A stretch of 12,247 nucleotides of DNA, from the NCBI GenBank assembly GCA_030641605.1, contig DAOWHD010000046.1:1-12247 (forward strand), written 5' to 3'. Shown here piece by piece: positions 206 through 11,517 of this stretch. How positions within the stretch are numbered: position 1 is the stretch's first letter; every line of letters starts with the position of its first letter. The stretch is from Thermoplasmata archaeon (GTDB lineage Archaea; Thermoplasmatota; E2; DHVEG-1). The notes under the pieces are model-generated. The model had not been told where the DNA came from and did no database searches. It saw nothing but the letters and a program-made list of their open reading frames with translations. The position numbers were made by a program, and so were the translations under genes.

Positions 206-605
206 TTACTGGTAGCTAAATGCTTCTTCTGTCTGGCCATAAGTTTTTAGTGATCTTATGGCTTGTAAATAGACATCTTGAGATATCTCTCCACTCGCCA
301 GTCTTTGTGCCAATTGCAGATGTAAGTTTGAGGGATTCTGTTGATTTTTAATTTCTGGAACTGGTTCTGGTTGTGTCTTTGTTTTTTCTGGTTTTATGTC
401 TAATGACATGCCCCTCATGTAAGCTTCTTTTACATGTTGATCTGACATTTGAACATAACTTTGAAGCGTATCGTATCTTTTGTGTCGGCTTTGTTTTCTA
501 ATTTCTTCTAGGTTTAGTCCCTTCTCTGCCATGTGTGTTATACTTGATATTCTGAATAGATGTGGGTATACTCGTTTTGTCAATCCAATCTCTGATGCAT
601 ATCTG
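206..605 (-). pseudogene. Tyrosine recombinase (XerC/D-like integrase), C-terminal catalytic remnant
   Basis: The minus-strand frame is open from 676 to a TAA at 206-208 (156 codons), but only the part from about base 601 downward looks like a recombinase. It carries the C-terminal half of the phage-integrase catalytic domain: RVYPHLFR gives the H-x-x-R pair (H39, R42), H65 lies in SRH, and Y74 in QSYVQMS is the expected nucleophile, nine residues after the histidine as usual. A short C-terminal tail, with LASGEISQDVYLQAIRSL at about residues 127-144, resembles a SHOCT-like tail. The N-terminal core-binding domain and the first catalytic arginine are missing, so it should be inactive alone. 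The first 25 codons are antisense to a zinc-ribbon reading frame and are probably not recombinase sequence. This looks like a broken gene left by a rearrangement at about base 600; a standalone small DNA-binding protein is less likely. Confidence 0.75.
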
Positions 606-699
606 TAAGATATGTGGTGCTGAATATTCAAAAGAAGAAATGCTATCTGATGATGTATGTTTGAATTGTGGCTCATTAATGATACATGAAGATTTATAA
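595..699 (+). CDS. 34-residue zinc-ribbon mini-ORF, possibly a truncated gene tail
   Basis: From ATG 595 to TAA 697-699 the frame encodes a 34-residue peptide. It contains CKICG near the start and CLNCG near the end, two CxxC knuckles 15 residues apart, as in small archaeal zinc ribbons. No ribosome binding site is visible and the ATG sits exactly where the recombinase similarity on the other strand stops. The reading frame is closed upstream at 553-555. The most likely reading is the 3' end of a larger zinc-ribbon gene whose front was lost when it joined the recombinase remnant. A genuine small protein cannot be excluded. Only one of the two overlapping antisense frames can be functional over 595-676, and the paired cysteines favour this one. 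Confidence 0.5.
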   Translation: MHICKICGAEYSKEEMLSDDVCLNCGSLMIHEDL

Positions 700-1404: not shown

Positions 1405-1620
1405 ATGGTAAGTATGACTTTATCAATTCCAAACGAACTAAAGAAAGAGATGGAGCTGTTTCCAGAAATAAATTGGTCAGTAGTTGCAAGAGAATCGATA
1501 AAAAGAAAGATATCAATTCTTCAAGAAATGAACAGAATACTTTCAAAAAGCGAACTTACCGACGAAGATGCGGTTCTTTTTGGAAAAAGGATAACAAAAA
1601 GAGTTGTCAAAAAATTATAG
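1405..1620 (+). CDS. vapB: VapB-type antitoxin
   Basis: This 71-residue protein is the likely antitoxin of the following PIN-domain RNase. The N-terminus MVSMTLSIPNELKKEM is the beta-strand and start of helix expected of a ribbon-helix-helix DNA-binding domain. It continues with INWSVVARESIKRKI at about residues 22-36, a pattern I recognise from archaeal VapB-like antitoxins. The charged C-terminal part, about residues 37-71, would wrap and inhibit the toxin. It precedes the toxin by 13 bp in the same orientation, the usual antitoxin-first order. Family knowledge predicts autorepression of the shared promoter. An overlapping longer frame starting at 1395 is out of frame and lacks these features. 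Confidence 0.85.
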   Translation: MVSMTLSIPNELKKEMELFPEINWSVVARESIKRKISILQEMNRILSKSELTDEDAVLFGKRITKRVVKKL

Positions 1621-1633
1621 TGGAGATAAATGA

Positions 1634-2041
1634 ATGGAACTTGTTCTTGATGCGAATATATTATTTTCAGCTTTAATAAAGGAGGGGATCACTCGAGAAT
1701 TAATGCTAGCTGATGAGATTGTTTTATTTACTCCTGAGTATATAATAAATGAATTTCTAGAACATATCGGCGAAATAGCAAAAAAAACCCATGTCGAAAA
1801 ACATGCTCTTATTGACTTTCTCAAAATATTGTTTAAAGAATCAAACATTAACATAATTCCCCTAGACGAAATAAGATCATTTATTGTGGACGCCAAGAAG
1901 ATTTCTCCAGATCCAGATGATGTTTTATATTTTGCCGCTGCAATAAGGATAAGATGCGGTATTTGGTCAAACGATAAAAAACTAAAAAATCAAGAACAAA
2001 TACCAGTATATTCAACCTATGATCTAAAAAATATATTTTGA
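1634..2041 (+). CDS. vapC: PIN-domain toxin, VapC-like ribonuclease
   Basis: This 135-residue protein is a PIN-domain nuclease, expected to cleave RNA with a metal ion bound by acidic residues and to be held inactive by the upstream antitoxin. The acidic set is visible: D6 in VLDANILFSAL, E40 in INEFLEH, D96 in DPDDVLYFAAA and D114 in WSNDKKL. The length fits an intact PIN protein and none of the active-site acids is lost. GGAG at 1622-1625 lies 8 bases before ATG 1634. The nearby ATG at 1630 is in another frame. It is co-transcribed with the antitoxin. The annotation as toxin rests on family and gene order; the specific RNA target cannot be inferred. Confidence 0.88.
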   Translation: MELVLDANILFSALIKEGITRELMLADEIVLFTPEYIINEFLEHIGEIAKKTHVEKHALIDFLKILFKESNINIIPLDEIRSFIVDAKKISPDPDDVLYFAAAIRIRCGIWSNDKKLKNQEQIPVYSTYDLKNIF

Positions 2042-2650: not shown

Positions 2651-3775
2651 CTATTTCTTGTATCCATACTCCTCAAAAGTAAGTTTCCACTCGTTGTATA
2701 CTTTCTTCTTGATCCGATCGTCAATCGTATAGTTGTCTGGCGTGTAATTCTCGTGTTTCTTAACATATCGTTCAAACGCAGGTTTTGCCTTTTCAAAACC
2801 TTCCAGCCCTAATTTTGCATATACTGCCTCAATTGTTTTTACTTGATTTTTAACAAAATCTTCATAGCTGATTTCTATCAAGTTTCCCTTAGGTATCAAT
2901 TTTCTATCCTCAAGATACCTTTCAAAAAGAGCACGATAGTTGAATAATATCTCCCTATCTAGTTGTTCACTGCTAACATGCTGAAATGAAAAAATCGGAA
3001 GAATTTTCTTATATAGTTTCCAAGTGGATAGATAAACTTTGTATGGATCTCTATAAATATGAATAAACTTTGCATCTGGATACATCTCAAGAAGTATCGG
3101 TATCTTTGCTGTATTGACAAGACTTTTTAACATTATTCGCTTTCCTTTGTTTTTATAGGTGATTTTCTTCAAAAAATAATTGTAAACCTCCATCCACCTG
3201 TCTTTTATCCCATCGTTTAAGTTTTCAAATAAAACATACTGCCTGAAATACTGCCTCATTCTTTTTGGAAAATACCACCCATGATAAAAGGAATAGGGGC
3301 TAAGATTAGCCACTGCATACTCTTCTTCATATGGCAGATCAGCATTTAGTTCTAAATCATCCATAGGTCGTTTGTCTGGCAAATGATTTTTTACAATATC
3401 TTTAAAAAATTTCTCATTTTCAATAATCATCCCTGGCGCCATAGTCTCGAAAGTAGACACATATGCCAAATTTTTATCTTGTCCGAGCAGATAATGCAGA
3501 AATGTAGTGCCGCTTCTCCAATGTCCAACGATAAAAAGAGGTGATACGACTTTTACATCTTTCAGTTTTTTATCGCATTTCCTTTTCTCATAAATTCTAA
3601 AAGGCATCATTATAATTATCATTACTGTAACATACAATGCCTTTGGTATAAACCGCCAATCAACTCGAAATCTATTTTCTATTAGCAATCTCATCCAGTT
3701 AACAAAAGAGGTCCCAGATAGCGGCTGCTCTCCAATATTGAGATAATCCCTTTTGTCATAGCTTAGTTTGGTCAT
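2651..3775 (-). CDS. Sulfotransferase family protein
   Basis: This protein of about 374 residues matches the PAPS-dependent sulfotransferase fold. The 5'-phosphosulfate-binding loop is GHWRSGTTFLHYLL (from about residue 84, with R87, S88, G89, T90, T91), and the 3'-phosphate-binding segment is IHIYRDPYKVYLSTWKL (R242, D243, followed by S/T). Family members move sulfate from PAPS to sugars, lipids or other hydroxyl groups; the acceptor cannot be read here. A hydrophobic stretch near residues 46-60 with flanking basic residues suggests membrane association. I chose ATG 3775; a TTG at 3781 is two codons upstream in the same frame, and neither has a strong ribosome binding site. A TATA-like AGTATAAAAAAG lies about 50 bp upstream on the minus strand. 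Length is normal and the gene appears intact. Modification of surface glycans is conceivable but unproven. Confidence 0.85.
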   Translation of the reverse strand: MTKLSYDKRDYLNIGEQPLSGTSFVNWMRLLIENRFRVDWRFIPKALYVTVMIIIMMPFRIYEKRKCDKKLKDVKVVSPLFIVGHWRSGTTFLHYLLGQDKNLAYVSTFETMAPGMIIENEKFFKDIVKNHLPDKRPMDDLELNADLPYEEEYAVANLSPYSFYHGWYFPKRMRQYFRQYVLFENLNDGIKDRWMEVYNYFLKKITYKNKGKRIMLKSLVNTAKIPILLEMYPDAKFIHIYRDPYKVYLSTWKLYKKILPIFSFQHVSSEQLDREILFNYRALFERYLEDRKLIPKGNLIEISYEDFVKNQVKTIEAVYAKLGLEGFEKAKPAFERYVKKHENYTPDNYTIDDRIKKKVYNEWKLTFEEYGYKK

Positions 3776-3781
3776 TTTCAA

Positions 3782-3984: not shown

Positions 3985-4560
3985 TTAATCATCCATCCCA
4001 TCATTACGATGGATAAGTATATATTTCTCATGATTTTTTTCCACAAGTTCAAAAGTTAACGTTGTTTTTCCCCCACTGCTAAATACAAACCCCTGTTCAT
4101 CCTCATTTATAATCCACTTATTATTAACATATTTTCCCTCTCTGAATTTAAAACCTTCTTCAGGGAACCATATAACCTGCTTATTGCTACCTGCAATTCT
4201 ATAAAATATTACCGATCCATTGCACGTCAAACCTGTATCAAAGTTACCGTTATTGTCAGGATCGGGATCCACACCAAAAGCCAAAAACATCAGATTATCG
4301 GGAAAATCAAATGTATGAGTCCTCTTTGTACCATCACTTGTATTGGCTTCATCTACATCCCTATATACGCCACTACTTATCATCGTATATAATTTTGACT
4401 CCAGCATATTGCATTCATTTTCCACTTGATTTTCAGCAAATATTACGCTGAAACTATTGTATCCAAAAGCCACCATAAAGGAGATGACGGCTATGACTGC
4501 TATGCTAATGACAAGCCGCATTGGAATCATTTCAGATGCTGTATCATCTACCTGTTTCAT
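3985..4560 (-). CDS. Pilin-like or pseudopilin-like single-pass surface protein
   Basis: This 191-residue protein has a short charged N-terminus, MKQVDDTASEMIPM, followed by one strongly hydrophobic segment at about residues 15-34 (RLVISIAVIAVISFMVAFGY). The rest is soluble and probably extracellular. The DDTASEMIP context before the hydrophobic helix recalls archaeal type IV pilins, where a prepilin peptidase cuts just before this region; no canonical cleavage motif is obvious, so processing is uncertain. An acidic Asn/Asp-rich stretch (VDPDPDNNGNFD, about residues 97-108) could bind calcium. Two cysteines are present. It begins 23 bp after the HerA-like gene on the same strand and is probably co-transcribed with it. 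The neighbouring secretion ATPase and T2SF protein support a minor pilin or pseudopilin role. Another anchored extracellular protein remains possible. Confidence 0.65.
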   Translation of the reverse strand: MKQVDDTASEMIPMRLVISIAVIAVISFMVAFGYNSFSVIFAENQVENECNMLESKLYTMISSGVYRDVDEANTSDGTKRTHTFDFPDNLMFLAFGVDPDPDNNGNFDTGLTCNGSVIFYRIAGSNKQVIWFPEEGFKFREGKYVNNKWIINEDEQGFVFSSGGKTTLTFELVEKNHEKYILIHRNDGMDD

Positions 4561-4583
4561 GCAAGTCCAACCAAAGAATTGTT

Positions 4584-5879
4584 TTATTGAGGTTCTATAA
4601 CAAGTGGTTCAGCCCCACCATGCCAACTATGGCGATGACGTATTTTTATGATATGTACCGACTCTGAAGTATCATCAATCACAAGTGCGACTCCCTTTTC
4701 ATCCCCCATTTTCTTAATGGATTCTCTAATGCCCTCTTGCATATGCACAGGGCGAATTTTACCTAATGCCGAGATATCTTCCTGAGATGTAAGCCTATGA
4801 CACAGTATAATATCACAGTGAGACATAATCTCCTGGTCCAGACTGCTAGGACGTTGAGTCGCCAGTAGAAGAGAAAGGCCCGGTTGCCTACCCTGTCGCA
4901 TCCATTTATTGATAAAAACATCTTTACTCAGGCTATTTTTGCCATCTGGTAAAAAAAGTTGTGCTTCGTCAATTGCCAACCATACCATAGGAATTCCATT
5001 TTCCTCTACGTCATGTCCCATTTTTTTTAACTCATAAATCTTACGCTCTTGTACACGTTCCTCATAGATTTTTTCACCGACAAGACTTGTTACTATGACC
5101 TTTAGAGTTTGGTCAGATAAGTGACTAATATCAAGAACCGCTATGCCTCCTCGTGTTACAATTTCATTAACACCCATTCCCACTCTATCAAAAATGCCCC
5201 ATGATTCTGCCATGGCAAGAAAATTTTCAGCAACACCACAAACAGCATCATTACTTCTTTTATCTATTTTGATACATTCCAACAATTCTTGAATAGAAAA
5301 TCTGTTTGATTCTGATTGCATTTTAAGGACTGCACGTGTCAGAACAATTCCAAAGGGATCAGTATATTTAACGTTGAAAAGTTGACACCAATGAAAAGGC
5401 GATAGTTCTGACGTTCTGATGGAAAAGCTATGAGCATCAATCCCTTTTGATCTATACTCATTGACAAATTTTTTAGGTACAAGAAGATTTATATCCACGC
5501 CTTTAGGGGTATCATCCCATCTGCTAAGCTTTTCTACATTAGCCATATTTGGAAAATGCATTGGCCAAAAAATACCAAGCGTATCAACAACAACAACTCC
5601 AAGATTGTTTTTTATCTCTTCTTCAAGCCGCGCAATTTCTTCTACAAAAACACCCATCGTGTAGGACTTTCCGTAACCACGTTTACCACATATTAAAATT
5701 ATGTGGGGGCGTAAGATATCTACATAAACCTCTGCACCCAGAGATGAATCCAAAGCATAATATCGACCTATGTTTAATGCCCCTCGTGAAACTTTCTCTT
5801 TTCTCCCCAGCACGTATTGTTTTCCTAAAGCATTTTTTGCCACTTCAGAAACATGTTTTTTCAACTTTAAATTCCCCAT
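4584..5879 (-). CDS. HerA/FtsK-superfamily ATPase (DUF87-like)
   Basis: This 431-residue protein is a P-loop motor of the HerA/FtsK superfamily. The Walker A motif is GKRGYGKS at residues 65-72 and Walker B is WLAIDE at 300-305. A strand ending in VVVVDTLGIF lies at about 95-104, and MRQGRQPGLSLLLATQRP follows Walker B, with the TQ-R of the sensor region characteristic of HerA proteins. The N-terminal 60 residues may form the small beta domain seen in HerA (GALNIGRYY). HerA itself pumps or unwinds DNA with NurA during end resection, but no NurA gene is adjacent here. The gene diverges from a secretion ATPase and is followed by a pilin-like gene, so a dedicated role in this machine, such as substrate coupling or assembly, is plausible. 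ATG 5879 has no ribosome binding site, consistent with a short or absent leader. Confidence 0.85.
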   Translation of the reverse strand: MGNLKLKKHVSEVAKNALGKQYVLGRKEKVSRGALNIGRYYALDSSLGAEVYVDILRPHIILICGKRGYGKSYTMGVFVEEIARLEEEIKNNLGVVVVDTLGIFWPMHFPNMANVEKLSRWDDTPKGVDINLLVPKKFVNEYRSKGIDAHSFSIRTSELSPFHWCQLFNVKYTDPFGIVLTRAVLKMQSESNRFSIQELLECIKIDKRSNDAVCGVAENFLAMAESWGIFDRVGMGVNEIVTRGGIAVLDISHLSDQTLKVIVTSLVGEKIYEERVQERKIYELKKMGHDVEENGIPMVWLAIDEAQLFLPDGKNSLSKDVFINKWMRQGRQPGLSLLLATQRPSSLDQEIMSHCDIILCHRLTSQEDISALGKIRPVHMQEGIRESIKKMGDEKGVALVIDDTSESVHIIKIRHRHSWHGGAEPLVIEPQ

Positions 5880-5940
5880 CTTTAATTTAGAAAAATATAT
5901 ATTGCAAGTTTATATATTTTGTGCGCGAGGAACGAAATTC
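5880..5940. promoter_or_regulatory. Shared divergent promoter region
   Basis: Only 61 bp separate the two divergent ATGs. The near-symmetrical TTTATATATTTT at 5909-5920 is TATA-like on both strands. It lies about 26 bp before ATG 5941 and 35 bp before ATG 5879, and could nucleate transcription both ways. A second TATA-like run is at 5892-5902. GAGG at 5927-5930 may serve as a ribosome binding site for the rightward gene. Linked regulation of both arms follows from the compact layout. Confidence 0.6.
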
Positions 5941-8169
5941 ATGGGGGAAGATCTCTGCTCATATAATGTCATAACAAAAACAGATAATAAGACACTGACC
6001 ATTGATTGCCGGCGATGCAACATTGGAAACTCTACGATATTTGACAAAAACTGCAGGTCAAATATTCTTAGAATACTTCAAACAGAACATGGCGTAGACG
6101 CAATCATACTTAATCATGCTCTTGTCCAAGTTTTCAGAGCAGAGGAATTAGACACTATCAAAGAATTAGCCCGCTTTATTGACGGGGTAAGTGTATACGG
6201 TGATTTGAAACTACCAAGTGAAAAATTTGACATATGTGAGAAGTGCAGTAAAAATAGACATGAGGAAATAAGAAAAATAATTGAATTATCTAAGACCGAT
6301 CCCATCAAGGCTTTGCTGAACCTTGAAGAAATTGTGAAAAGGAAAGAATATACAGACAAAAGATGCGTCAATTGCCACAGAAAATACAAAGATATCATTT
6401 CTGAGATGATATCAAAAGCTGAGTTCAGACGACGTGCCACAGAAAAAACAATTGACAGCGAATTCTTTTATGCCAAATACATAAGACCATATGTCAGACC
6501 AGGTTTCATAGATTCTTACATTCAACTTGATCCGCCACCAGATGCTGTTTTTTTAGAGTCCTACGAAGTGCAACGTAATAAGGGGGGCCGGCCAATAAAC
6601 ATCTCGCTATATGTGCTTAGGACACGACCTGAGAAACTTTATTTTGTGGTCCCTTTAGAATATGATCTGCCACGTAGCGAGATATATCTATTGGAAAAGG
6701 TTAAACGACATCTTTCTCACCATAGGCCAAAGGACGCTTCTTTTATGGATGCGAATACTGCAAGAGAATATTTTCGACATTTTGGGAGACAAGTCATAAC
6801 TAAGCTTGTTAAAGAAGGGGAATTTGACATCAATGCAAGTAGGATTGAACTTCTGTCTGACATTTTCGCTCGCTACACTGCAGGTTTTGGAATACTTGAG
6901 GACATTTTACTGGATTCTAGAATACAGGATATCTATGTAAATGCACCTGTAACCAACAACCCATTACATCTTGTAGTAGATGGGGAAGAATATACTTCAA
7001 ATGTATATTTGTCCGTTAGCGACGTAGATACTCTTGCATCTCGCTTTAGAGCTCTGAGTGGCAGAGCATTTTCCGAAGCCTCACCAGTAATGGACATGGA
7101 TCTTAAGAACTATCATACCCGTGTGACTGCTATCAGCAACCCTCTTACTCCACATGGCATCGCTTTTGCATTGAGAAAACATCGACAGAAACCGTGGACT
7201 CTTGCACATTTTATAGCAAACAAGATGATCTCTCCAGCCGCTGCTGGATTTTTAAGTTTCTTAATCGATGGCCAAGCATCCCTTCTCATAGCTGGAAGTC
7301 GCGGATCTGGCAAAACATCTCTTCTTAGCGCGTTAATCCTTGAGATACCTCAGCGTTTTAGAATCCTTACTATTGAAGACACATCCGAGATACCTGTAGA
7401 GATTCTTCAAAAACATGGATACAAAATACAGTCATTAATTACTAAATCAATATCTTCAGGTTCAAATTCCGCAGAAATCAATCCAACTGATGCTCTTAGA
7501 ACCGCTCTGCGTCTTGGAGAATCGGTTTTAATACTGGGGGAGGTTCGAGGCGTTGAAGCCAAGGTCTTATTTGAGGCCATGAGAGTTGGTGCTGCAGGCA
7601 ATTTAATCATGGGAACAATACATGGATCCACAACTAGAGATGTCTATGAACGAGTTGTCTATGATATCGGCATACCACCAACATCATTTAAAGCTGTAGA
7701 TTCCGTAGTAGTTGCCGCCCCTATCAGATCAGAAGGAGGAATAGAACGTAAACGAAGAGTTGTACAGATATCAGAAATCACAAAAACAGGATGGACCGTT
7801 GATCCAGAACCTGACAGTGTCTTTCAAGACATAATGATATACAACACAAAGAAGGACGAGCTGATCCCTACAAATCTACTTGATATGGGACAGTCAGAGA
7901 CAATAGGAAACATTGCTAAGAAATGGGGAATTACTATAGAAAAAGCACTTCAAAATATAAAACTCAGAACTTTCATCAAAAAAACCTTAGCTGATTACAG
8001 CAAAGACAATGAAGAGTTGTTGGAAGCACATGCCTCCAGAGATGCCAACAACGCTTTTTGGATGTTTATTGAGGAAAGTAAATTGCAAAATGATGAAGTA
8101 AACTATGACCAGATAAGAAGAAAATGGCTGAAATGGTTCAAAGAATACATCGGAAGAATAGTACCATGA
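5941..8169 (+). CDS. Type II/IV secretion system ATPase (FlaI/TadA/VirB11 family) with Cys-rich N-terminus
   Basis: This 742-residue ATPase should power assembly or export by a type IV pilus-like or Tad-like machine at the cytoplasmic face. Motifs are complete: Walker A GSRGSGKTS at 452-460, Asp box LTIEDTSEIP just after, Walker B LILGEVRG with E534, and His box GTIHGST with H561. The N-terminal part is unusual: C23/C26 (CRRC) and C38, then C99/C102 (CEKC) and C142/C145 (CVNC), a set that could bind zinc. The middle region, about 340-440, is the family's N-domain (GFGILEDILLDSRIQDIYVN). The frame is open to 5770, but that stretch is antisense to the HerA-like gene; ATG 5941, with GAGG upstream and a well-placed TATA box, is the better start. 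The last codon overlaps the next gene as ATGA. Confidence 0.92.
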   Translation: MGEDLCSYNVITKTDNKTLTIDCRRCNIGNSTIFDKNCRSNILRILQTEHGVDAIILNHALVQVFRAEELDTIKELARFIDGVSVYGDLKLPSEKFDICEKCSKNRHEEIRKIIELSKTDPIKALLNLEEIVKRKEYTDKRCVNCHRKYKDIISEMISKAEFRRRATEKTIDSEFFYAKYIRPYVRPGFIDSYIQLDPPPDAVFLESYEVQRNKGGRPINISLYVLRTRPEKLYFVVPLEYDLPRSEIYLLEKVKRHLSHHRPKDASFMDANTAREYFRHFGRQVITKLVKEGEFDINASRIELLSDIFARYTAGFGILEDILLDSRIQDIYVNAPVTNNPLHLVVDGEEYTSNVYLSVSDVDTLASRFRALSGRAFSEASPVMDMDLKNYHTRVTAISNPLTPHGIAFALRKHRQKPWTLAHFIANKMISPAAAGFLSFLIDGQASLLIAGSRGSGKTSLLSALILEIPQRFRILTIEDTSEIPVEILQKHGYKIQSLITKSISSGSNSAEINPTDALRTALRLGESVLILGEVRGVEAKVLFEAMRVGAAGNLIMGTIHGSTTRDVYERVVYDIGIPPTSFKAVDSVVVAAPIRSEGGIERKRRVVQISEITKTGWTVDPEPDSVFQDIMIYNTKKDELIPTNLLDMGQSETIGNIAKKWGITIEKALQNIKLRTFIKKTLADYSKDNEELLEAHASRDANNAFWMFIEESKLQNDEVNYDQIRRKWLKWFKEYIGRIVP

Positions 8170-10157
8170 AAGAGGATACGCACTGGTTTGAAAAAGGAAC
8201 AGCATTTGCAAAGAAATATTTTTCATGGATGACAGTAGACAATAGTAGAACCCAACAAAAAATCAAAAAATACTTCACACAAGAATATATAGATAATCTC
8301 AATTTCACAGGATTAAACGTTGAGCCGCACGGCATACTAATTTTTGCCTATGCAGGGGCACTAATATCTTTTATTTCTGTTTTCATAATAGATCTAATTA
8401 TTATATTTTCATACGGTACAAACATCGAAGCGATTGATGTTTTAACATTGCTTCTTATGATTGCTACTTCGATTTTTTTCCCACTTACCATAATGAACTT
8501 GTTAGCCAATTATCCTAAAACGTATGCCCGCTACATCAAAATTCATTCTCTTGGAGACATCCCTGAAGTTCTAAGTTATCTTGTAATGTATCTAAAGTTA
8601 GTACCTAACCTTGAAAATAGTGTAAAATTTGCAACATCCGAATCATCTACCTCTTTAGTGAAAGAACTTCGTAAAATGCTTTGGGATATGGAAATAAGAG
8701 TATATTATGGAATTGATGATGCATTTATAAGTTTTGCAAATTTCTGGGGAAAATGGAGTGAACATTTCAAAAGGGCGTTGCATCTAATACGAAGTTCAAT
8801 CCACGAATCAGAAGAAGCACAACGAATAATCACACTTAACAGAGCTCTTGATGTAGGTTTGGATGGCACCAGAGATCTGATGAATAAATTTGCCAGCAAA
8901 CTACATCAACCTACAATGTTCATCTATTCAATAGGGATTATGATTCCTCTTTCCATCATCGCTATGCTACCTGCCGCTGGGTTAATAGGTATGAAAATTA
9001 CAATATTCCAGGTTTTCCTCCTGTACGACATCATTCTTCCTCTGTTTATATTTTTATATACTCGTAAAATTCTCCTCTCCAGACCAGCAACGTTTAATCC
9101 TCCTAACATACCTAGCGATCATCCTGATTTAGTGAACATTGATAAACACAAAGGATTGATTATATCCGTAGCAGCTGGGTTGCTGATTGCTTTACCTGGC
9201 ATTTTTTCCATGATAGTTCCAATATATGTAGAAAATAATTCATCAAATGACATTCTAAACTTTGTGTCCAATCCTGCTGGTCTGAACAGTTATTTCCCTG
9301 TAACTCTCTTCATCATATGGGGCATTGCTACAACAATTACGATTTACAGCCTAAGTGTGTATCGCCCCTATAAAAAAATAAGAGACAATATCAAACAGAT
9401 TGAAAGGGAATTCAGTGATGCACTTTACATACTTGGTAAAAGAATCAGTGAAGAAAAATCGCCGGAGAAAAGTTTCATATATGCGGCAAAAACCATGGAA
9501 GGTGCAGAAATTGCAGAAGTATTCAGCCAAACTGGATACAATCTAGCAGCAATGCACACTAACATTAGCAATGCATTATTCAGCCCAGAATACGGATCCT
9601 TGAGATACGTCTATTCAGATCGCATCAGAGCAATAATGCATTTGTTTGTGGAAGGCATTCAGAAAAGTCAGAGGTCGGCAAGTATTTCCATCATTCGTAT
9701 AGCCGACCATCTTAAAGAACTGCAACAGGTTGAAAGCAAAATAAAAGACACACTTTATTCCCTTACCTCCACATTGAGATCAACTGCTGCAATCTTTGCC
9801 CCATTAATAGCCGGTGTTACCCTTGCCATCACTAAGCTGATCTCAAAAATTCTTCAGTCTATGGCCGGTAAATTTCCGACTGAAAGCACCATGGGTTCTT
9901 CAACTATGCTTGCAAGCGTCAGTGAAGCATTTACATTAGAAAATGTTCGACCCGAATATTTTGTTCTAGTGGTAGGCATCTATATCATCGAACTTGTCAT
10001 TCTTTTAACTAGATTTACCAACGGCATTGATGAGGGTGACGATAAGGCAGAATATATGTGTTCTCTGGGAAAAATGATGCCAACAGCAGTAATCGTTCTC
10101 ACGATTACAATTATTATTGGACAGATGCTGTTTTCATCCTTAGTTAGAACGTTCTAA
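8166..10157 (+). CDS. T2SF-domain membrane platform protein (FlaJ/TadB-TadC-like), tandem domains
   Basis: This 663-residue membrane protein is the probable inner-membrane platform that works with the preceding ATPase. Two predicted membrane segments lie near residues 57-82 and 92-113. A first cytoplasmic T2SF domain follows at about 125-245 (GDIPEVLSYLVMYLKLVPNLE), then hydrophobic segments near 250-310, 335-360 and 385-405. A second T2SF domain at about 415-540 begins REFSDALYILGKRISEEKSP, and three more hydrophobic segments end the protein. The architecture resembles TadB and TadC joined in one chain, as in many archaeal homologues. I chose ATG 8166, which forms an ATGA overlap with the ATPase stop and implies translational coupling. 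An in-frame ATG at 8124 would add 14 residues inside the ATPase gene and is less likely. Confidence 0.9.
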   Translation: MKEDTHWFEKGTAFAKKYFSWMTVDNSRTQQKIKKYFTQEYIDNLNFTGLNVEPHGILIFAYAGALISFISVFIIDLIIIFSYGTNIEAIDVLTLLLMIATSIFFPLTIMNLLANYPKTYARYIKIHSLGDIPEVLSYLVMYLKLVPNLENSVKFATSESSTSLVKELRKMLWDMEIRVYYGIDDAFISFANFWGKWSEHFKRALHLIRSSIHESEEAQRIITLNRALDVGLDGTRDLMNKFASKLHQPTMFIYSIGIMIPLSIIAMLPAAGLIGMKITIFQVFLLYDIILPLFIFLYTRKILLSRPATFNPPNIPSDHPDLVNIDKHKGLIISVAAGLLIALPGIFSMIVPIYVENNSSNDILNFVSNPAGLNSYFPVTLFIIWGIATTITIYSLSVYRPYKKIRDNIKQIEREFSDALYILGKRISEEKSPEKSFIYAAKTMEGAEIAEVFSQTGYNLAAMHTNISNALFSPEYGSLRYVYSDRIRAIMHLFVEGIQKSQRSASISIIRIADHLKELQQVESKIKDTLYSLTSTLRSTAAIFAPLIAGVTLAITKLISKILQSMAGKFPTESTMGSSTMLASVSEAFTLENVRPEYFVLVVGIYIIELVILLTRFTNGIDEGDDKAEYMCSLGKMMPTAVIVLTITIIIGQMLFSSLVRTF

Positions 10158-10299: not shown

Positions 10300-11517
10300 T
10301 TAGGTAAATAGATGCATGTCGTTGTACCCGCCGAAGCCTAACCAGATTGATTGATTAATTCCAGGTATGGTTAAGTTTCCTCGAACCAGCAATAATACTT
10401 CTCCCGGGAAAAGCGTTCCTTGACTTAGGGTAAGCAAATTAGAATAAGGTATAATTTCCTCTCCTCTGATATATGTAAGGTTTTCTGATTTGACTATACT
10501 ATCTTCTAGCTCACATTTACTTATTAGTTGTCTTTCATTGTTTGAGGTGGCATATGTGTAAACTGTGACATCTTCTGCCGTTAAAGTCAGCTTTGTCGGA
10601 TTGTGTATTTCTAGTGTTAAATGCCCAATCAATCCTGTTAGGGAGGCTTCATACTCAGGTTTTATTATCAAATCTATTGGAGAATCTGGAGGTATCAATT
10701 CACTTAAATTTGGAACTTTTACTATGGTTTCTGCTGATATGCTCACGGACTCGTTTACACCTGCTATTTCAGCCCCGGCAGTGGCACTCATATTGATAAA
10801 AAGTATTTTTGCGTTTAACGCTTCGATGAGCATTTTCCCATTACCAGTAAATTCTGCAGAATTCTTATAAGGTATAATGCCTCCAATGATGGTTAGGTTT
10901 CCCACCTTTTTTCCTGTTTCAGTTTCCACTGTCATTGAAATATTTCTAATATGAATATTGAATGCGTTAGGATTGTATGCATCTATTGATACATTAAATC
11001 TGATTCTTTCTTGAGTTATGTCGGAGAAATCTGCTGTTATTTGTATGGACGGTGGAGACACTTGTCCAATCACTTTTTCTATAGATGTTATTATGTCAAC
11101 TGAAAGAGGAATCGTTTTATGAATGAAACCAATGCATAATCCTAAAACACCTGTTATTTTGCTTGTTAACATTTTTGGGCTGCTGCCGTTAAATGCAACA
11201 TGAGCAACTGTAACAAAGGTTTTGTTTTCATTTGGAGGAATACTCCCTCCTTTTATTGTAGCATGTCCTACTTTCTTTCCTTCAGGCGTAATCATAGTTA
11301 TTTCAAAGTTTTTAGCTATCAATTCAAAAGCGTTCTGATTTGAAATATCTATTGTAGTTTCTATTATAACTTCTTTGGAATTTATTTCTATGACATCGAT
11401 ATTGATGGTTGTCACTGGAGTCTGCAATACTTGAATATCAAAAAAGATGAATGAGGCTGCAGTCACATTTATGATGGTTATCATCGATATTAATATGATA
11501 ATAATTTTCATTTTCAT
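10300..11517 (-). CDS. Membrane-anchored extracellular protein with three LEA14/WHy-like domains
   Basis: This 405-residue protein has an N-terminal hydrophobic segment (about residues 4-26) acting as signal peptide or anchor, followed by an exported beta-rich region. Three LEA14/WHy-like units can be seen. Unit 1 holds NQNAF at 60-64 and EGKKVG at 79-84; unit 2 holds NPNAF at 182-186 and TGKKVG at 201-206; unit 3 holds NPTKL at about 306-310. The period is about 122-124 residues. The N-P-x motif after a strand is characteristic of the LEA_2 fold. Many N-x-S/T sequons occur, so N-glycosylation is possible. ATG 11517 is preceded by GTGGAG at 11523-11528. LEA14-like proteins are linked to desiccation stress in plants; in archaea the role is not settled. 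Proximity to the secretion genes hints at a surface role, but it is on the opposite strand from the T2SF gene. Confidence 0.78.
   Translation of the reverse strand: MKMKIIIILISMITIINVTAASFIFFDIQVLQTPVTTINIDVIEINSKEVIIETTIDISNQNAFELIAKNFEITMITPEGKKVGHATIKGGSIPPNENKTFVTVAHVAFNGSSPKMLTSKITGVLGLCIGFIHKTIPLSVDIITSIEKVIGQVSPPSIQITADFSDITQERIRFNVSIDAYNPNAFNIHIRNISMTVETETGKKVGNLTIIGGIIPYKNSAEFTGNGKMLIEALNAKILFINMSATAGAEIAGVNESVSISAETIVKVPNLSELIPPDSPIDLIIKPEYEASLTGLIGHLTLEIHNPTKLTLTAEDVTVYTYATSNNERQLISKCELEDSIVKSENLTYIRGEEIIPYSNLLTLSQGTLFPGEVLLLVRGNLTIPGINQSIWLGFGGYNDMHLFT

What the first reader, a model, noticed from the sequence alone, without database searches (positions are those of the whole stretch)
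3985..10157. Divergent HerA-like ATPase/pilin and secretion ATPase/T2SF module: a possible two-motor archaeal surface machine
Two P-loop motors, a HerA/FtsK-type and a FlaI/VirB11-type, diverge from a 61-bp region, each followed closely by a partner gene (pilin-like, tandem T2SF). Classical archaella and pili use a FlaI-type ATPase with FlaJ and no HerA motor. The pairing resembles the VirD4/VirB11 logic of conjugative systems, suggesting a pilus or secretion system with a dedicated coupling or substrate-feeding ATPase. Motifs and gene order are seen directly; the joint function is inferred.
Basis: partly seen in the sequence, partly recalled or inferred. Interest (0 to 1): 0.8.

Follow-up and report, generated by a model that had tools for sequence, protein, structure and literature searches.

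The report
Archaeal pilus machine with extra motor
In a branch of poorly known archaea, the genes that build a hair-like surface filament are paired with a gene for a second, DNA-pump-like motor protein, so this filament machine may have two engines rather than the usual one.

Summary
Window 3985-10157 carries a pilin-like gene and a HerA-family ATPase (minus strand) diverging across 61 bp from a VirB11/FlaI/TadA-type ATPase and a TadC/T2SF-like platform (plus strand). The grouping is not accidental: HerA lies divergent from and next to that ATPase in 24 of 24 testable genomes, and the two are jointly present or absent in 59 of 60. The pilin-like gene is in all 25 HerA-positive genomes, in nine of them away from HerA; there the gene after HerA is a prepilin peptidase in 5 of 9, and the pilin ends a cluster of up to eight mostly prepilin-like genes, with DUF7284 and DUF7286 members. 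Haloferax volcanii and Methanosarcina acetivorans also have DUF7286. So this is a type IV pilus-superfamily machine with a HerA-type motor as a fixed partner. The VirD4-like 'coupling ATPase' reading is unproven; operon partners suggest pilin or filament handling, family precedent suggests DNA. The capped listings of seven paper searches showed no HerA component of a type IV pilus.

The parts
3985..4560 (-). pilin-like protein (DUF7311-type), second gene of the HerA operon
   Evidence: ORF; alignment A2 (15 members); model (pLDDT 84.8, helix 6-63 then beta domain); present in 25 of 25 HerA-positive genomes; 8 of 10 f7/f10 homologues fit a prepilin motif such as RG-ATFIP, the window copy reads TASEMIP and does not
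4584..5879 (-). HerA-family ATPase without HAS barrel, T4P-linked subfamily
5880..5940 (.). 61-bp divergent promoter region with back-to-back TATA-like boxes
   Evidence: gap of 30-166 bp in 20 loci; AGAAAATTATATA...TTTATATATTTTGT-like stretch seen by eye in the window, L037, L038 and, less exactly, L040; not tested against chance
5941..8169 (+). VirB11/FlaI/TadA-type assembly ATPase with Cys-rich N-terminal extension
   Evidence: PF00437; alignment A4 (21 members): C23, C26, C38 invariant; G452, R454, G455, K458 of Walker A, EDT, GEVRG and GTIHG invariant
8124..10157 (+). TadC/T2SF-like membrane platform (probable start 8166)
   Evidence: alignment A3 (23 members, 64% mean column identity); PF00482 in 4 of 23; hhalign E 6e-5 for the second half only; nine hydrophobic segments; Haloterrigena homologue
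2651..3781 (-). sulfotransferase gene downstream of the pilin (loosely linked, not core)
   Evidence: PF13469; the same gene in 3 of 27 genomes (own, L053, L058)

Best explanation
This is the core of a type IV pilus-superfamily machine of Thermoplasmatota archaea whose base has two different ring ATPases. Shown: a conserved pair of divergent operons (HerA plus pilin or prepilin peptidase; assembly ATPase plus platform) that co-occurs with a set of prepilin-like proteins. Inferred: the VirB11/TadA-type ATPase and the TadC-like platform polymerise the filament. The HerA hexamer is a soluble second motor that docks at the same base and works on pilins or the filament, by the VirB4 logic (pulling pilins out of the membrane, or driving withdrawal of the filament). 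Confidence that HerA is an integral part of the machine is about 0.9; confidence in pilin/filament handling rather than DNA as its job is about 0.45.
Against: Nearly all studied HerA-clade proteins act on DNA (recalled). The protein lacks the VirB4 N-terminal domain and has no transmembrane segment, so how it reaches the base is unknown. Archaeal and Tad pili are thought to extend and retract with one ATPase (PMC11178815 passages), so a second motor is not needed on principle, and most relatives run other T4P ATPases without this HerA (some ATPase match in 58 of 60 genomes, the HerA in 25). Two rather complete genomes (G053, G058) have the pilin and the DUF7286-type protein but neither this HerA nor its ATPase. 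In 4 of 9 f7/f10 genomes HerA is followed by neither pilin nor peptidase. The pilin model has no significant match in the PDB. Nearly all f1 pilins (15 of 16) lack the usual prepilin cleavage motif. The genomes are related, so the co-occurrence counts are not independent events.
Confidence: 0.5

Rival explanations
1. T4P-based DNA transporter: the pilus captures or contacts DNA or a partner cell and the HerA hexamer pumps DNA across the membrane, as CedB/CedD do with Ups pili in Sulfolobales or TdtA in Thermus.
For: The closest fold matches are HerA-type DNA translocases. Catalytic motifs are intact. Precedents: Ced/Ups (PMC11868833 passages), Ced/Ted (PMC9905601 passages), TdtA (PMC5365140 passages).
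Against: No nuclease or DNA channel was recognised among families recurrent in the flanks, by reading N-termini. ComEC: 2 of 60 genomes match at E 0.001, 0 over cut-off (also not in the four archaeal controls, so its absence says little). DprA: 8 of 60 over cut-off; the three full-length matches (159-190 bits) are in HerA-negative genomes, the other five are partial matches in 149-196-aa frames, four of them in HerA-positive genomes. CedB, CedD and canonical HerA equivalog models score far below cut-off. The HerA operon holds a pilin or prepilin peptidase.
Confidence: 0.3
2. Regulator or assembly scaffold: HerA uses ATP binding to dock on the ATPase ring and gate assembly, as FlaH does with FlaI in the archaellum, without moving any substrate.
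For: FlaH is the precedent of an ATP-binding partner of the assembly ATPase (PMC4858521 section). The divergent, short shared promoter region suggests joint expression.
Against: The motor residues, including the arginine-finger region and the Walker B glutamate, are invariant in 24 of 24 members, more than a mere nucleotide switch needs.
Confidence: 0.15
3. Accidental neighbourhood: a DNA-repair or defence HerA happens to lie beside a pilus operon.
For: A 36%-identical HerA on a Haloplanus plasmid lies near a BREX-type ATP-binding protein gene, so near relatives exist outside T4P loci.
Against: 24 of 24 adjacency and 59 of 60 joint presence/absence. A second, canonical-type HerA is elsewhere in the same genome. 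Distances congruent.
Confidence: 0.03

Closest known systems
Archaeal type IV pili of Makarova et al. 2016, subclade 4F (PMC4858521)
   Same: Assembly ATPase with a variable Cys-rich N-terminal extension, TadC platform, prepilins, a coiled-coil partner (c6 here, weak DUF7310 match); DUF7286 occurs in H. volcanii and M. acetivorans.
   Different: HerA is named in that paper only as the superfamily of the assembly ATPase, not as a component. Clade membership was not tested by a tree here.
HerA (HerA-NurA) DNA translocase
   Different: About 431 aa, no HAS barrel match at E 0.01 in 24 of 24 members, 23% identical to the genome's own canonical-type HerA, no NurA recognised in the loci, own conserved C-terminal SWHGG-E tail.
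VirB4/VirD4 with VirB11 of type IV secretion systems
   Different: TadC-type platform and class III-type prepilins; no VirB4 N-terminal domain and no VirD4-like transmembrane anchor. Other T4SS parts (VirB6, VirB8, VirB10) were not searched for.
Ced/Ups and Ted systems of Thermoproteota
   Same: HerA/VirB4-type ATPase working alongside archaeal pili (PMC11868833 and PMC9905601 passages).
   Different: CedD has a transmembrane and an N-terminal domain; NCBIfam CedB and CedD scores are 15 and 25 bits against cut-offs of 700 and 600.
TdtA of Thermus thermophilus (PMC5365140)
   Same: HerA-like hexameric ATPase tied to cell-to-cell DNA movement, with a competence system in the recipient (passages).
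   Different: Carried by a 14-kbp mobile element with a NurA-like nuclease; the passages seen list no pilus gene there.

Membership tests
Type IV pilus superfamily machine | assembly ATPase of the T2SSE/VirB11 family | tested here: met
   PF00437 70.7 bits over cut-off 24.9; motifs in 21 of 21
Type IV pilus superfamily machine | TadC/PilC/T2SF platform protein | tested here: inconclusive
   PF00482 in 4 of 23 homologues only, best 6e-4; hhalign E 6e-5, probability 65%, for the second half, nothing for the first. Position next to the ATPase and a Haloterrigena homologue make it very probable
Type IV pilus superfamily machine | prepilins with class III signal and pilin fold | tested here: inconclusive
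   f7/f10: motif in 8 of 10 pilins and, read by eye, in most cluster proteins c1-c4. Window copy and 15 of 16 f1 copies (window included) lack it. Model is helix plus beta domain but has no PDB match
Type IV pilus superfamily machine | prepilin peptidase | tested here: met
   PF01478 over cut-off in own genome, C73; directly after HerA in 5 of 9 f7/f10 genomes
Canonical HerA (DNA end resection) | HAS barrel domain | tested here: not met
   HAS-barrel in 0 of 24 members at E 0.01; the canonical-type HerA of the same genome matches it at 8e-4
Canonical HerA (DNA end resection) | HerA_C region (PF05872) | tested here: inconclusive
   4 of 24 members, best E 8e-4
Canonical HerA (DNA end resection) | equivalog score | tested here: not met
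   NF040819 37.6 bits against 970, NF040937 50.8 against 800
HerA-FtsK superfamily ATPase | Walker A, Walker B, arginine-finger region, RecA-like fold | tested here: met
   invariant columns
Archaellum | FlaI equivalog | tested here: not met
   NF058587 132.5 bits against cut-off 550
Archaellum | FlaH, FlaF, FlaG in the locus | not tested
   not searched for by model; clusters flanks by blastp only
Ced/Ted DNA import | CedB/CedD equivalog | tested here: not met
   15.1 against 700, 25.2 against 600 bits
Type IV secretion system | VirB11 equivalog | tested here: not met
   TIGR02788 85.5 bits against cut-off 249.95
Makarova subclade 4F T4P | Cys-rich N-terminal extension on the ATPase | tested here: met
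   C23, C26, C38 invariant in 21 of 21
Makarova subclade 4F T4P | placement in the ATPase tree | not tested
   no named reference set built; 43% identity to a Haloterrigena ATPase over 48% of the query is suggestive only
Makarova subclade 4F T4P | coiled-coil intracellular partner and haloarchaeal-type pilins | tested here: inconclusive
   one member of each tested: c6 DUF7310 20.7 bits against 40 (below cut-off); DUF7284 34.4 and DUF7286 115.7 over cut-off 27; DUF7311 27.0 at cut-off 27; DUF7285 15.9 below it; second pilin and c2 no such match

The most novel reading that the evidence does not exclude
A chimeric nanomachine between type IV pilus and type IV secretion system: a pilus base with two unlike ring motors, in which the HerA ring is a dedicated second motor that either withdraws pilins and filament (the retraction motor archaea were thought to lack) or pumps DNA through the base without ComEC.
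Probability: 0.45. Interest if true: 0.85.

Novelty: new variant of a known kind. Interest (0 to 1): 0.62.

Why it matters
Archaeal type IV pili are described with a single motor ATPase; PilT-type retraction ATPases are absent from their gene clusters, and how such pili withdraw is open (PMC11178815 passages). A HerA-family motor genetically locked to one pilus lineage gives a named candidate for a second motor and a link between T4P and T4SS logic. DUF7286, a conserved protein of the associated pilin cluster, also occurs in Haloferax volcanii and Methanosarcina acetivorans, so the question may be testable in organisms with genetics, provided that a HerA partner is found there, which was not tested.

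Tried and rejected
Accidental grouping: rejected by adjacency and co-occurrence. Mobile-element origin: one scan of viral contigs with the HerA profile found no relative; in plasmids one close HerA (36% identity) turned up in a different context. Bacterial-type competence: ComEC over cut-off in 0 of 60 genomes; DprA over cut-off in 8 of 60, full-length only in 3, all HerA-negative. Two proteins of the pilin cluster (DUF7286- and DUF7284-type) found no match on plasmids, so whether haloarchaeal chromosomes also carry a HerA in this locus was not tested; I recall such a gene order in haloarchaeal annotation, but that is memory and comes from no call. Structure search for the pilin model gave no significant match. 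Sequence search of solved structures with the platform profile gave no relative. The sulfotransferase next to the pilin was considered as a component; it is there in 3 of 27 genomes only. HerA relatives inside 1059-1445-aa proteins of other families lie in fetched stretches without a match to the window's ATPase, platform or pilin and were set aside. Co-occurrence P values (Fisher) are not quoted as evidence because related genomes are not independent.

Full report
What is there. The window is a whole contig (G000:C26, 12,247 bp) of a 56%-complete metagenome-assembled genome of 712,612 bases in 89 contigs. The four named loci found with its HerA gene are titled Thermoplasmatota or Thermoplasmata archaea. 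The four genes are real ORFs. The minus-strand pair is pilin-like (3985-4560) and HerA-like (4584-5879), 23 bp apart. The plus-strand pair is the assembly ATPase (5941-8169) and the platform (8124-10157, probable start 8166). The two pairs are separated by 61 bp.

The grouping is conserved. In the 25 HerA-positive genomes of the 60, HerA is directly divergent from the ATPase in 24; in the 25th (G017) both genes sit at contig ends. ATPase and platform are adjacent in every contig that extends far enough. The gap between the two start codons is 30-166 bp in the 20 loci measured; some f1 loci (the window, L037, L038 and, less exactly, L040) share a stretch of two back-to-back TATA-like boxes, seen by eye and not tested against chance. 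Joint presence or absence of HerA and ATPase holds in 59 of 60 genomes; the exception, G008, is cut by a contig end inside the ATPase gene. Pairwise distances of HerA, ATPase and platform across 19 genomes correlate at 0.91, 0.90 and 0.96; vertical inheritance alone would also give high values. This HerA is not a general part of archaeal pili: 58 of the 60 genomes match the assembly ATPase at E 0.001, many only through other pilus ATPases, and only 25 have the HerA.

Links to pilus biology. In all 16 HerA-positive f1 genomes the pilin-like gene follows HerA (in G029 it is cut by the contig end). In families f7 and f10 the next gene is a prepilin peptidase (PF01478) in 5 of 9 genomes, one of them a fragment at a contig end; in the other 4 (G057, G052, G046, G054) it is neither. 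Synteny suggests loss there: HerA-peptidase-lipoate ligase in L051 against HerA-lipoate ligase in L049, and the same with an oxidoreductase-like gene in L048/L050 against L055/L056 (gene names are my reading of N-termini). The pilin-like gene is nevertheless present in all 9 f7/f10 genomes at another place, on another contig except in G052, where it is about 31 kb away. There it is the last gene of a cluster: c6 (coiled coil and two hydrophobic segments), a second small pilin, c2, c3, c4, c1 (about 1000 aa), c5 (signal peptide and C-terminal hydrophobic segment) and the pilin. All eight are seen in 4 of 11 fetched loci (L157, L160, L161, L163); the others are cut by contig ends or stretch ends or lack c5. 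c1-c4 and the pilins mostly begin with a prepilin-type signal such as DKRG or DNRG before a hydrophobic helix. Pfam, one member of each: DUF7286 115.7 bits and DUF7284 34.4 bits over cut-off 27, DUF7311 27.0 at cut-off, DUF7285 and DUF7310 below cut-off. The 1000-aa protein is found in 23 of 25 HerA-positive and 3 of 35 HerA-negative genomes. It is not found in the window's own genome, which is 56% complete. Two genomes, G053 and G058 (94% and 92% complete), have pilin and 1000-aa protein but neither this HerA nor its ATPase; that is loss of the whole motor locus or an assembly gap. In the f1 genome G012 two cluster members (c2-like and a pilin-like protein with a weak DUF7311 match) lie just downstream of the platform gene, so the cluster can be linked to the motor genes in f1 as well. 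DUF7286 also rings in Haloferax volcanii and Methanosarcina acetivorans among 14 control genomes.

A detail worth keeping. Eight of ten f7/f10 pilins fit a prepilin motif under my pattern (RG-ATFIP and the like), whereas 15 of 16 f1 pilins, the window's included, do not, typically reading TASEMIP or FAAEMIP. The f1 loci have no prepilin peptidase next to HerA. The f1 pilin may be uncleaved or cleaved at a changed site.

Mechanism. The gene content (assembly ATPase, probable platform, prepilins, prepilin peptidase) says type IV pilus superfamily. The HerA ring is the extra part; that it is a hexamer is inferred from its family. Three readings remain: a second motor for pilins or filament, a DNA pump, or a scaffold. 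I lean to the first. HerA's operon partner is a pilin or the prepilin peptidase in 21 of 25 genomes, and no recurrent neighbour reads as a nuclease or DNA channel. The VirB4-VirB11 pair in T4SS gives a worked precedent: VirB4 extracts pilins and VirB11 modulates it (PMC6362355, passages). The DNA reading draws on the record of the HerA family, including CedB/CedD (PMC11868833, passages) and TdtA (PMC5365140, passages). Against it stand no ComEC over cut-off in 60 genomes and no full-length DprA match in any HerA-positive genome, though several of those have partial DprA-like matches, four of them over cut-off; archaeal DNA import by Ced does not use ComEC either (recalled).

Comparison with what is in print. 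The census of archaeal type IV pili (PMC4858521; parts 1-5 of 8 and passages read) mentions HerA only as the superfamily of the assembly ATPase and in a reference title. Features of its subclade 4F (Cys-rich N-terminal extension of the ATPase, coiled-coil partner, euryarchaeal pilins) agree with what is seen here, but no tree was built to place this ATPase. Searches that joined HerA with archaeal pilus or HerA-structure terms listed 20 of 48, 9 of 9, 15 of 71, 8 of 18, 10 of 177, 10 of 114 and 8 of 42 papers; none of the listed titles, abstract starts or passages read describes a HerA component of a type IV pilus. DUF7284/7286/7310/7311 are named in no paper of the library. Unlisted papers, supplementary files, preprints and most subscription journals were not seen.

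Limits. Genomes are incomplete and related; counts are of genomes, not of independent events. The platform's first half, the pilin fold and the cleavage of the window's pilin are not established. Haloarchaeal chromosomes were not examined for a HerA partner.

Noticed in passing
window 206-676 (-): C-terminal fragment of a tyrosine recombinase (PF00589, 28 bits) near the left contig end; a possible mobile-element remnant.
   Followed up: no
window 1405-2041 (+): Small protein followed by a PIN-domain protein (PF10130), a toxin-antitoxin-like pair.
   Followed up: no
window 2651-3781 (-): Sulfotransferase (PF13469) beside the pilin; the same gene is near the pilin in L053 and L058 but not in the other loci; possible modification of surface glycans.
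   Followed up: partly
window 10300-11517 (-): LEA_2-domain protein with one N-terminal hydrophobic segment, convergent with the platform gene; no homologue in the other loci at E 1e-5.
   Followed up: partly
L109 189-1967; L110 7473-9385: More distant HerA relatives (30-31% identity) directly preceded by a small membrane protein; in L109 it has a prepilin-like N-terminus (KGALEGLPLYLII), so HerA paired with pilin-like proteins may have arisen more widely.
   Followed up: partly
L107, L108, L112, L113, L115, L116: HerA domain inside proteins of 1059-1445 aa in other Thermoplasmatota families; function unknown.
   Followed up: no
L067 11962-13131: Haloplanus plasmid HerA, 36% identical to the window's, two genes after a BREX-type ATP-binding protein gene; a possible defence role of a near relative.
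   Followed up: partly
P0309, P0311-P0316: 420-432-aa relatives of the pilin with Big_1 and Invasin_D3 Ig-like domains, perhaps adhesive tip pilins.
   Followed up: no
L060 (G000:C43) and L061 (G000:C63): The same genome has tandem FlaI-like ATPases with two separate T2SF genes on C43, and another ATPase with two T2SF genes on C63, so several type IV filament systems coexist.
   Followed up: partly
L057 10313-13297: In G054 the gene after HerA is a 994-aa PAS/GAF sensor protein.
   Followed up: no
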